This document shows, piece after piece, positions 8,821 to 25,809 of a DNA stretch of 38,254 nt (the stretch's first letter is position 1; every line of letters begins with the position of its first letter). A program made the position numbers and the translations under genes. The DNA lies in the IMG/VR virus record IMGVR_UViG_3300010318_003851, positions 1-38,254 of that record. One strand, written 5' to 3'. Below the pieces are notes generated by a model. That model was not told the DNA's origin, ran no database searches, and saw nothing but the letters and a program-made list of their open reading frames with translations. The DNA comes from a virus.

Positions 8821-9330
8821 TTAATTATTTACTAAGAGACATCTCGTTTTTAAATCGCGAAAATAGTGATCATTTAAAAATGTCAGCTTTTTTGCTGTAA
8901 GATATTTAAAGGCTCTGTCAAATGTATATTTGCGCTTATTATTACGTAATTGTGTGAGAAATGATGTAGCTTGATGTTGTTCTATTAAACCAATATAATA
9001 ACTTAATGGTTTGCTGCTGCAGTACCATGAAATAGGCATATTTTTCCTACAGTCATCTATTATTTTTTGTATGTATTGAGTCAACTCTGGCGTTAAATTA
9101 ATACAATCATCATTGTAATAAAATATAACCTTACCCTTCTCTACACTAATAGCTGTATTGCAGCAATTAATTATTATACAATGCGTCAGCAACCGCTTTG
9201 CGGTTGCTTTAAATTCATTTACATTATATTGTGTGCATAAATTATTATAATCATTAATAATTGATTTTAATAATTCACAAAAGTCACAAATAGTAATATT
9301 ATGAAGAGGAAAATAATGTAATAGCTTCAC
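8821..9330 (-). CDS. Hypothetical 169-aa protein
   Basis: No family is recognised. The protein is Cys-rich for a phage protein (nine Cys), with CDFCEL near the N-terminus and CIIINCCN around 51-58 but no clear zinc-finger spacing, and a basic C-terminal helix region (about 128-152). It begins with GTG overlapping the stop of the GIY-YIG gene and ends directly at the start of the 252-aa gene, so it belongs to the same transcription unit. A strong 9-bp hairpin lies inside its coding sequence. Confidence 0.6.
   Translation of the reverse strand: MKLLHYFPLHNITICDFCELLKSIINDYNNLCTQYNVNEFKATAKRLLTHCIIINCCNTAISVEKGKVIFYYNDDCINLTPELTQYIQKIIDDCRKNMPISWYCSSKPLSYYIGLIEQHQATSFLTQLRNNKRKYTFDRAFKYLTAKKLTFLNDHYFRDLKTRCLLVNN
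9188..9208. other. GC-rich perfect hairpin inside a coding gene
   Basis: AGCAACCGC (9188-9196), TTT, then GCGGTTGCT (9200-9208) pair over all nine bases. It stands out from the AT-rich surroundings and on the plus strand is followed by TTTAAATT, as in a weak intrinsic terminator. The minus-strand gene 8821-9330 is translated across it. Confidence 0.7.
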
Positions 9331-9731
9331 TGTTTTAATTTACACAGTCTACAGTTAATTATCCCGTTATAATATTCTTCTTTTAGAAGAACTTCCTCTT
9401 TTATTTGTTCTTGGATTTCATAATATCCAAGCTCCCACTTGCTTTTACAAAAACGTATTATTTTAAATTCAAAATTTTCTTTACCTAAATTAAGAATATC
9501 AGAATTTAATTCTTTACAAGAACCAGTATATGTTTTCCAGTCCGACTCCTTTACAACACCTTCACGATTCTTTTTACCCTTACGTAAAGGTTTTTTATAT
9601 TTTTTAATACACTGTTTTTTACCGATGTATTTGCGTCCATTGGTTTTATTAGTAATAATATATATAAAACCAAAAAAATCGTTTGGTATATCTATATTAC
9701 ATATCCAATGTCCTAAACTTTCACCATTCAC
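9327..9731 (-). CDS. GIY-YIG-type nuclease-like protein
   Basis: The 134-residue protein shows GFIYIITN (21-28) and KYIGKK (34-39), the two strands of the GIY-YIG core, then a Lys-rich region and SDWKTYTGS. The later FEFKIIRFCKSKWELGYYEIQEQ has the length and charge pattern of small phage GIY-YIG proteins. Such proteins can be free-standing homing endonucleases or DNA-nicking enzymes; which applies is not visible. No ATG fits the frame, so a GTG start at 9731 is used. It heads the GIY-YIG, 169-aa, 252-aa run of adjoining minus-strand genes. Confidence 0.7.
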   Translation of the reverse strand: MNGESLGHWICNIDIPNDFFGFIYIITNKTNGRKYIGKKQCIKKYKKPLRKGKKNREGVVKESDWKTYTGSCKELNSDILNLGKENFEFKIIRFCKSKWELGYYEIQEQIKEEVLLKEEYYNGIINCRLCKLKQ

Positions 9732-23374: not shown

Positions 23375-24053
23375 TTTAGCTAAAAAAAATAAAATTTTAA
23401 TAGCAAGTTGTACTAAAGAGAAAGATCAAGCAAAGACACTTTTAAACAGGTCATTACTTGATAATCCACCACTTTTGTGTGATAAAAACTTTGTTTTAAA
23501 CAATAAGAATGGTCTTTCATATGCATACAATAAAATTATTGATGCACAAATAAATCATTATGATTTTATAGTTTTTATTCATGATGATGTTTATTTGGAT
23601 TGTATAAATCTAGCTGATAAACTTGAGAGAGCAAAGAATGAGTTAAAGTATGATATTATTGGCGTTGCTGGAACTACAATGCCTAAAATCACCCACCCCG
23701 CTCTATGGCATATTATGGGCGAGCGAAGCAATCACAAAGGCTTTGCTGGACATATTGCACCAGATGGGTCAAAATATATGACAAGCTTTGGTCCTACACC
23801 GAGCAGAGCTACTATTATTGACGGGCTGTTTATAGCAATAAATTGCAATGCTGTGAAACGCACTGGTTGGAGATTTAATGAAAATTTTGAGTTTCACCAT
23901 TACGATATTTCTAGTTGTATTGATGCAAATAGATTAAAAATGAGAATAGGTGTCATTCCTATTATGTTATTTCATAAATCACCAGGACTTGCAAGCATTG
24001 ATCAACCAGATTGGGCAGAAAGCAACAAAAAGTTTCTATCTATATATTCATGA
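23355..24053 (+). CDS. GT-A (family 2-like) glycosyltransferase
   Basis: About 232 residues with a Rossmann-like start (KILIASCTKEKDQ), FIVFIHDDVYLD as the metal-binding DxD-type motif, IIGVAGT, and FHHYDIS as the later catalytic part. It resembles the short GT2-like group often annotated only as glycosyltransferase. The start is uncertain: ATG at 23355, 23364 or a farther 23280 are in frame; the first two give a short overlap with the previous gene. The stop overlaps the gene 41 ATG. Placed between modified-base genes and helicase, where T4 keeps beta-gt, it could glycosylate DNA; virion or surface glycans are equally possible. Confidence 0.75.
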   Translation: MIEMIFNLAKKNKILIASCTKEKDQAKTLLNRSLLDNPPLLCDKNFVLNNKNGLSYAYNKIIDAQINHYDFIVFIHDDVYLDCINLADKLERAKNELKYDIIGVAGTTMPKITHPALWHIMGERSNHKGFAGHIAPDGSKYMTSFGPTPSRATIIDGLFIAINCNAVKRTGWRFNENFEFHHYDISSCIDANRLKMRIGVIPIMLFHKSPGLASIDQPDWAESNKKFLSIYS

Positions 24054-25369
24054 AGCTTGACTTAGAGTGGACAGAAAAGGTTATTCTATGTAAATCGCTT
24101 ATTGACGAAGATTATTTTTCATTAATAAGTGAACATTTAAAAACTGAACACTTCTCAAATAAAAATTATGCATTTGTGTTTGATGTAGTCAAATATTTTT
24201 TTGACGCAAGAAAGCAGCTTCCAAGTGCTACAGAAATTCGCTCCTATCTTCAAACAGATGAACAAAAGCGTGTTTTTAAAAATGTATTAGACGACTTAAC
24301 AAATGTAGAGACAGAGCTTAATAAAGATGAGCTATATAATAATACAGAAAGATTTATTAAGGAGCGTAGCATATATCAAACACTGCTTAAAGTTGCAAAA
24401 GATATTGGTGATGGAAATATTGATACGTCTAATATACTAAATCAATTTGAACAAGCGTGTAATGTTTCGTTTATACATGATATTGGTACAAATTTGTATA
24501 AAGACTTTCATAAAATTCGCGAACACATTTTACAGCCCGAGCCAACCATTAGTACGGGATATAAGTGGTTAGATGAAAAAATAGGAGGAGGTTTTTTAAG
24601 AGATGGTCGCGCAATGTATGTATTTGCTGGTGAAACTAATATTGGTAAGAGTATAGTTCTGGGTAATTTTGCAATTAATCTTGCTAGACAAAAACTAAAT
24701 GTGCTTGTTATAACACTCGAAATGTCAGAGATGGTATACAGTAAAAGACTTCTTGCTAATATATCTGACATACCAACTAGTAAGTTAAAGGATGATATTG
24801 AAATAGTACAAGCACAAATAGAAAATTTTAATAGTAGTGCTCGTGGAAATATTATTGTCAAGGAGTTTCCACCAAGTATGATGACGCCACGTGACATACA
24901 TAATTATATCAGTAAGGTGATTAAATCAGGAATTCAGATAGGTGCGATTGTTCTCGATTACGTCAATCTTTTAACGAGCAGTAAGGGTAAAGATTCATAT
25001 GAGCGTTTAAAATATATATGCGAAGAAATACGTGCAACAACATACACGTTTAAATGTCCACTAATAACAGTAACACAGTTAAATCGGTGTCTAGATGTAA
25101 GTTCGACTGTCATAACTGATAAAGGAAATAGAGCAATAGGCGATATACAGAAGGGAGATAGGATTTTAGGTAAGGATGGCTTCGTAGAAGTTAGATATGT
25201 ATACCCCAAAACAAAGCAATTATGCTACAAAATTAAAACAAGGAGCGGAAGAGAGATCATATGTTCTAGTAAACATATATTTCCAACACACAATGATTTC
25301 AAATCTATTGATACCGGACTACGCAAAGGAGACAAATTATTGAGTTTAACTGAGTGGCCAGGTAAATAA
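24050..25369 (+). CDS. 41: Replicative DNA helicase gp41, N-terminal extein plus N-intein
   Basis: Residues 1-346 are the N-terminal part of a DnaB-family helicase: Walker A GETNIGKS (194-201), Walker B AIVLDY (299-304), and VTQLNR (341-346), the conserved H3 motif. Residue 347 starts an intein N-half: CLDVSSTVITDKG, a block B region CSSKHIFPT and an end of LTEWPGK before TAA. The helicase is finished by the next gene, so the mature protein (346 + 96 = 442 residues) requires trans-splicing. The true start is ATG 24050, overlapping the glycosyltransferase stop; an upstream TTG is ignored. Confidence 0.93.
   Translation: MKLDLEWTEKVILCKSLIDEDYFSLISEHLKTEHFSNKNYAFVFDVVKYFFDARKQLPSATEIRSYLQTDEQKRVFKNVLDDLTNVETELNKDELYNNTERFIKERSIYQTLLKVAKDIGDGNIDTSNILNQFEQACNVSFIHDIGTNLYKDFHKIREHILQPEPTISTGYKWLDEKIGGGFLRDGRAMYVFAGETNIGKSIVLGNFAINLARQKLNVLVITLEMSEMVYSKRLLANISDIPTSKLKDDIEIVQAQIENFNSSARGNIIVKEFPPSMMTPRDIHNYISKVIKSGIQIGAIVLDYVNLLTSSKGKDSYERLKYICEEIRATTYTFKCPLITVTQLNRCLDVSSTVITDKGNRAIGDIQKGDRILGKDGFVEVRYVYPKTKQLCYKIKTRSGREIICSSKHIFPTHNDFKSIDTGLRKGDKLLSLTEWPGK
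25088..25366 (+). other. Split intein, N-terminal half (93 residues)
   Basis: The intein begins at Cys 347 (TGT at 25088-25090) directly after the helicase motif QLNR and ends at the TAA 25367-25369. Block A (Cys-Leu-Asp with VITDKG and GD) and block B (G..I.CSSKH) are present. Size and termini resemble the naturally split gp41-type inteins. Confidence 0.9.
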
Positions 25370-25398
25370 GCAGATGGAGTTAGATATATTTTTAAATT

Positions 25399-25518
25399 AT
25401 GAATAATTTAGTCGAAGATGAAATAGTAGAAATAGAACTTGTGGGGAGTGTAGATACTGTTGATATAGCTGTATCAGATGATAATCTTTTTATAGCAAAT
25501 GGAATTCTCACACACAAT
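25399..25518 (+). other. Split intein, C-terminal half (40 residues)
   Basis: It starts with its own Met and ends with NGILTHN, followed by Ser as the +1 extein residue (TCA at 25519-25521). VDTVDIAVSDDNLFIANG is the block F pattern. Confidence 0.9.
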
Positions 25519-25809
25519 TCAGGTTATTCTGTCAGCGAACCAGGTCTAACAACACTAAGTGAAAGCTATGCCGTTGGAACTACAGCAGATTTTGTTGGGT
25601 CTGTGTGGCAAGGAGAAGGTGATAATGATTTAGGAATCATGAGAATGTCACTTTTAAAAAGTAGATTTGGTACAAATAGTGGTACAAACGCATTTAAGAT
25701 AGATTACTCTACACTTAAAATAAAAGAAGATAAAGAGCTCAATAATATGACACAAGATTCAGAAAGTGTAATGAGGACACTTGATATCCTTAGATCTGAT
25801 TTAAATTGA
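25399..25809 (+). CDS. 41: Replicative DNA helicase gp41, C-intein plus C-terminal extein
   Basis: After a 40-residue C-intein, residues 41-136 are the C-terminal helicase part: SGYSVSEPGL, SYAVGTTADF, VGSVWQGEGD, LLKSRFGTN. The preceding gene stops 29 bases upstream. This frame also has its own in-frame TAA at 25393-25395, just ahead of the ATG, so the halves cannot be one frameshifted gene joined by a single indel. No homing endonuclease lies between or inside. A GGAG at 25376-25379 is a possible ribosome site, but about 19 bases away. Confidence 0.9.
   Translation: MNNLVEDEIVEIELVGSVDTVDIAVSDDNLFIANGILTHNSGYSVSEPGLTTLSESYAVGTTADFVGSVWQGEGDNDLGIMRMSLLKSRFGTNSGTNAFKIDYSTLKIKEDKELNNMTQDSESVMRTLDILRSDLN

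What the first reader, a model, noticed from the sequence alone, without database searches (positions are those of the whole stretch)
24050..25809. Naturally split intein in the replicative helicase, halves in adjacent genes without a homing endonuclease
Seen: the helicase frame runs to QLNR, continues as an intein N-half from Cys347 and stops at 25369. Thirty bases on, a new ATG opens a 40-residue C-half ending HN, with Ser next and the rest of the helicase. Both frames have stops in between (25367 and 25393), so one sequencing indel cannot join them. Known: gp41-type inteins of this kind splice in trans very fast. Inference: the phage depends on trans-splicing for an essential enzyme. The side-by-side halves with no endonuclease look like a remnant or early stage of the fractured-gene arrangement.
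Basis: partly seen in the sequence, partly recalled or inferred. Interest (0 to 1): 0.85.

Follow-up and report, generated by a model that had tools for sequence, protein, structure and literature searches.

The report
Two-gene helicase rejoined by split intein
This phage encodes its main DNA-unwinding enzyme as two neighbouring genes whose protein products very probably join themselves through a split intein, and the short gap between them seems to hold the last scrap of a selfish DNA-cutting gene that once sat there, so it catches one step in how natural split inteins come about.

Summary
A T4 gp41-like replicative helicase is cut at QLNR|SGYS. The first gene ends in an intein N-half (Cys347; 93 aa); the second begins with a 40-aa C-half (…THN, then Ser). 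Stops in both frames separate them, and a second contig (99.76% identical) has the same layout. Both halves match the solved gp41-1 intein (E=7e-17 and 0.002).

In IMG/VR I found over 30 distinct helicase loci with an intein at this site, all split. Most carry a free-standing endonuclease gene between the halves (the known 'fractured gene' layout). Four lineages hold decayed endonucleases, and five, counting the window, have none. Two relatives show the deletion itself, between 5-6 bp repeats.

The window's gap ends in codons reading FLNYE*. The endonuclease of its nearest intein relative ends FLNYD*, with 19/20 identical bases and the same stop/start overlap. So this is most likely a remnant, not an early stage. 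The intein groups with endonuclease-bearing loci while the helicase groups with intein-free phages, which suggests horizontal arrival, then endonuclease loss.

Trans-splicing itself is inferred, not shown. New variant of a known kind.

The parts
24050..25087 (+). helicase N-extein (residues 1-346; Walker A GETNIGKS; ends QLNR)
   Evidence: Pfam DnaB_C 4e-20, PHROG 19 DnaB-like helicase 2e-60, solved DnaB-like helicases 3e-16
25088..25366 (+). intein N-half, 93 aa, Cys1
   Evidence: gp41-1 intein 6qaz E=7.2e-17; aligned with L008, L009, L013 halves
25367..25369 (+). stop codon of the first gene
25370..25398 (+). 29-bp gap; same sequence in sibling contig L010
25374..25406 (+). micro-ORF MELDIFLNYE*; its 3' part (about 25388-25406, IFLNYE*) is the probable remnant of the endonuclease gene's end and overlaps the C-half start codon
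   Evidence: 19 of 20 bases shared with the end of the L008 endonuclease gene; anchored tail tests. The 5' part is not shown to be homologous
25399..25518 (+). intein C-half, 40 aa, ends ILTHN
   Evidence: 6qaz residues 95-128, E=0.0022; intC profile
25519..25809 (+). helicase C-extein starting with Ser (+1), 96 aa, and stop
   Evidence: PHROG 19 5e-7; about 72% identical to uninterrupted helicases L003-L007

Best explanation
A gp41-type split intein interrupts the phage replicative helicase. Two polypeptides are made from adjacent genes: helicase 1-346 with the intein N-half, and the intein C-half with helicase 347-442. The halves associate, fold into one HINT domain and trans-splice through Cys1, the terminal Asn and the +1 Ser, giving a 442-residue helicase. 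The locus is a former 'fractured gene': the element arrived with a free-standing endonuclease gene between the halves, and that gene was later deleted except for about its last six codons. The split outlived it. Shown: anatomy, homology, a second contig, relatives with full, decayed and absent endonucleases, and the tail match. Inferred: splicing, its efficiency, and dependence of the phage on it.
For: Both halves match gp41-1. Catalytic ends are intact: Cys1, C-terminal His-Asn, +1 Ser. Same layout in a second contig with 20 other substitutions. All inteins found at this site are split, most with an endonuclease gene in the gap. Decayed endonucleases in L014, L016, L023, L040/L041; none in L018, L031, L033, L043/L044. 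Deletions readable in L016 vs L015 and L031 vs L026. Tail match FLNYE*/FLNYD*, 19 of 20 bases; 11 of 28 independent endonuclease tails end FL[NK] plus 0-4 residues, against 20 of 2,063 window stops. Intein tree puts the window with L008, L009, L013, all with endonucleases; helicase tree puts it with intein-free L003-L007.
Against: No splicing data. The tail match is short, partly shares bases with the C-half start, and in an unanchored version of the test 27 of 2,063 stops score as well. No close relative with the endonuclease is known (best intein identity 56%). The 5' end of the supposed endonuclease leaves no significant trace.
Confidence: 0.85

Rival explanations
1. Early stage: a contiguous intein was split by mutation, and endonucleases enter such gaps only later, so the window shows the state before invasion.
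For: There is no endonuclease now, and the root of the intein tree is unknown, so gain and loss cannot be told apart from the tree alone.
Against: The gap ends like the endonuclease gene of L008. The nearest intein relatives all carry one. No contiguous intein was found at this site. Relatives show the deletion process directly.
Confidence: 0.1
2. The locus is a dead gene: the intein no longer splices and the phage uses another helicase.
For: The window is a fragment, and the rest of the genome is unknown.
Against: Intact catalytic ends, open frames of 439 and 136 codons, and of the four differences from L010 in these genes three are silent and one is R-to-K. It is the only helicase of this kind in a window that holds most of a T4-like replication set.
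Confidence: 0.04
3. The ribosome bridges the gap by hopping or by frameshifting, making one chain with a contiguous intein.
For: The halves are adjacent and in order.
Against: Two frame changes would be needed through the third frame. Relatives have gaps from 12 to over 1,400 bp with whole genes in them, which only trans-splicing explains alike.
Confidence: 0.02
4. Sequencing or assembly error in a normal contiguous intein gene.
For: Metagenomic contig; reads were not available.
Against: The same bases occur in a second contig with 20 other substitutions. At least two indels would be needed. The split layout recurs in relatives.
Confidence: 0.01

Closest known systems
Fractured genes with gp41 split inteins and free-standing Vsr-related endonucleases (Dassa et al. 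2009, doi 10.1093/nar/gkp095; text not held here, content recalled)
   Same: Same host gene, same intein type, same split position in the intein, adjacent halves in order.
   Different: No endonuclease gene in the gap; only a probable tail of it. As recalled, each of their 26 loci has an endonuclease between the halves; this could not be checked.
gp41-1 intein (PDB 6qaz, 6riz) and gp41-8
   Same: N-half 7.2e-17 and C-half 0.0022 to 6qaz. gp41-1 and gp41-8 are among the fastest split inteins tested in vitro (PMC7090010).
   Different: Distant in sequence; activity of the window's intein is untested.
Shigella phage ESh36 (ON528746.1)
   Same: Named phage record with gp41 in two genes and a split intein at the same site.
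   Different: A 332-aa gene annotated 'hypothetical protein' lies between the halves.
Cyanobacterial DnaE split inteins (from general knowledge)
   Same: Split intein without endonuclease, trans-splicing a replication enzyme.
   Different: There the two genes lie far apart in the genome; here they are side by side.

Membership tests
gp41-type split intein | N-half and C-half homologous to the gp41-1 intein | tested here: met
   6qaz E=7.2e-17 and 0.0022
gp41-type split intein | nucleophile Cys1, C-terminal His-Asn, +1 nucleophile (Ser) | tested here: met
   Cys at 25088, THN then Ser at 25510-25521
gp41-type split intein | insertion in the replicative helicase at the same site as relatives | tested here: met
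   After QLNR in the DnaB_C domain; uninterrupted relatives L003-L007 and split relatives L008, L009, L013
gp41-type split intein | halves encoded by separate open frames | tested here: met
   Stops at 25367, 25381, 25393; second contig
gp41-type split intein | protein trans-splicing activity | not testable with these tools
   needs co-expression
Fractured gene | host gene broken in two by a split intein | tested here: met
Fractured gene | free-standing endonuclease gene between the halves | tested here: not met
   29-bp gap; no endonuclease profile match in it. A probable tail remnant only, so it is filed as a derivative of a fractured gene and not as one.

The most novel reading that the evidence does not exclude
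Endonuclease loss from fractured genes is a recurrent, effectively one-way path that turns mobile split inteins into stable endonuclease-free ones, and the surviving endonuclease tail is kept because its stop overlaps the C-half start codon and couples translation of the second helicase piece.
Probability: 0.3. Interest if true: 0.68.

Novelty: new variant of a known kind. Interest (0 to 1): 0.52.

Why it matters
How natural split inteins arise and persist is an open question. One proposal is that an endonuclease gene breaks the intein and the break outlives the endonuclease. Here that last step is visible within one protein family: intact, decayed and erased endonucleases in the same gap, with deletion junctions at short repeats in two pairs of relatives. 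The loci also add new candidate gp41-type split inteins for protein engineering.

Tried and rejected
(1) A 5' endonuclease remnant (start codon 25374 and its leader): the alignment to L013 looked good, but 215 of 5,460 window 36-mers score as well; not claimed. (2) Chance tail: tested with anchored scores and with an independent set of endonuclease C-termini and judged unlikely, though an unanchored version of the test was weak (27 of 2,063 stops reach the best score). (3) Tail traces in L018 and L043: gaps of 12-14 bp, nothing recognisable. (4) Dassa et al. 2009 is not held, so whether it lists endonuclease-free loci could not be checked; paper searches found no report of them. (6) Structure prediction was not run: the halves are separate chains and a fused sequence would not be accepted.

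Full report
WHAT IS THERE. The frame from ATG 24050 runs 439 codons to TAA 25367-25369. The frame from ATG 25399 runs 136 codons and its stop ends at 25809. Residues 1-346, and the last 96 residues of the second product, are a DnaB-like / gp41 replicative helicase (Pfam DnaB_C 4e-20; PHROG 19 2e-60 and 5e-7; solved replicative helicases up to 3e-16). Between them lie an intein N-half of 93 aa starting at Cys347 and a C-half of 40 aa ending in His-Asn, followed by Ser. Both halves match the solved gp41-1 intein chain 6qaz (7.2e-17 and 0.0022). Stops at 25367 (N frame) and at 25381 and 25393 (C frame) mean that no single indel can fuse them.

IS IT REAL. A second IMG/VR contig (3300010299_000190) covers the region with 20 substitutions in 8,317 bp and no indel. 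The gap is identical and both stops are kept. Of four differences in the two helicase genes, three are silent and one is R-to-K.

RELATIVES. Scans of IMG/VR with alignments of the C-half and N-half and one phage record gave 42 records, the window included, with a split intein at this helicase site by automatic criteria, plus L018, L031, L034 and L043/L044 by inspection. After near-copies were removed, 34 remained for the tree. No contiguous intein was found at this site, and 81 loci have an uninterrupted helicase (these were picked by similarity and give no prevalence). Most split loci hold a gene of roughly 250-480 codons between the halves. In L008, L009, L013 and many others it belongs to one family with a conserved GDRFHANP-like motif, which I take for the Vsr-related endonuclease family of the fractured genes (this assignment is inference; Pfam gives only weak matches to DUF559 and the nuclease family MTES_1575). 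In L026 and L038 it is an HNH endonuclease. Shigella phage ESh36 has the same layout with a 332-aa hypothetical protein in between.

A SERIES OF DECAY. L014, L016, L023 and L040/L041 have gaps of about 190-410 bp with broken pieces of the endonuclease. The window, L018, L031, L033 and L043/L044 have gaps of about 12-90 bp and no endonuclease. In two pairs the deletion can be read directly. L016 lacks about 890 bp present in L015, joined at AAGAC. L031 lacks about 685 bp of the HNH gene of L026, joined at AAATTA. L031 starts only 221 bp before the N-half's stop, and its two flanks match L026 at 100% and 93.5%, so a chimeric contig is not fully excluded there.

THE WINDOW'S GAP. In the third frame, the gap and the first bases of the C-half gene encode MELDIFLNYE*, whose TAA (25404-25406) overlaps the C-half start. 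The endonuclease of L008, the nearest intein relative, ends ...KQFLNYD*, with its stop overlapping the C-half start in the same way; 19 of 20 bases agree. Scored from the stop codon backwards against the L008 tail, no other stop in the window reaches this score, and only one other does against any of 16 tails (the printed counts include the gap itself). In a separately collected set of 28 endonuclease C-termini (it overlaps the earlier set in a few members), 11 end FL[NK] plus 0-4 residues, against 20 of 2,063 stops in the window, the gap one included. L033 has a similar remnant (LHCTKFIKNNLNE*, against ...LDKCLKFIKENIYE* in its relative L046; 0 of 1,982 null tails score as high). The 5' side gave no convincing match.

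HISTORY. In a tree of the intein halves the window pairs with L008 (97/85) within a set of L008, L009 and L013, all with endonucleases (97/96). Absence and decay are scattered over the tree: at fewest five and four changes, with at least three of each forced by well-supported branches. In a tree of the helicase itself the window groups with intein-free L003-L007 (100/100). The simplest reading is that the split element, with its endonuclease, entered this phage lineage from an L008-like source and then lost the endonuclease. Loss of the whole intein in L003-L007 is the alternative.

HOW IT WORKS. By homology to gp41-1 and gp41-8, which trans-splice fast in vitro (PMC7090010), the two halves should find each other and join Arg346 to Ser347 of the mature helicase. 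This step is inferred. Most start codons in the window lack an obvious Shine-Dalgarno sequence, so the stop/start overlap at 25399-25406 might couple translation of the C-half to that of the micro-ORF; this is speculation.

NOVELTY. The kind is known: split gp41 inteins in fractured genes (Dassa et al. 2009, from memory because the text is not held). An endonuclease-free, side-by-side version, and the series leading to it, was not found in the papers searched. Hence: new variant of a known kind, of moderate interest.

Noticed in passing
L025:146-4441: This helicase seems to be in three genes joined by two split inteins. The first break is at Walker A (GAGK|C...HN|SW) with an unusually short N-half and a nuclease gene after it; the second is at the site discussed here.
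   Followed up: partly
L039:121-1995: A second split intein at Walker A (GPKAGK|C...HN|STW) with the two frames directly side by side (stop at 901-903, next frame open from 904) and no endonuclease; another endonuclease-free split, in a helicase that is also in three pieces.
   Followed up: partly
L018:1919-3958: Two inteins in one helicase: a contiguous one at Walker A and the split one at the downstream site; L036 and L043 look alike.
   Followed up: no
L032:5876-7760: A second split-intein C-half (...ANNILIHNC) in front of what looks like a ribonucleotide reductase fragment, with an endonuclease of the same family just downstream.
   Followed up: no
window 9327-9731, - strand: Free-standing GIY-YIG endonuclease of the SegE type (Pfam SegE_GIY-YIG 7e-32), so the phage still carries a homing-type nuclease elsewhere.
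   Followed up: partly
window, gene starts across 108-33993: Most start codons are preceded by A+T-rich sequence without a clear Shine-Dalgarno motif, which may hint at a host that does not rely on it.
   Followed up: no
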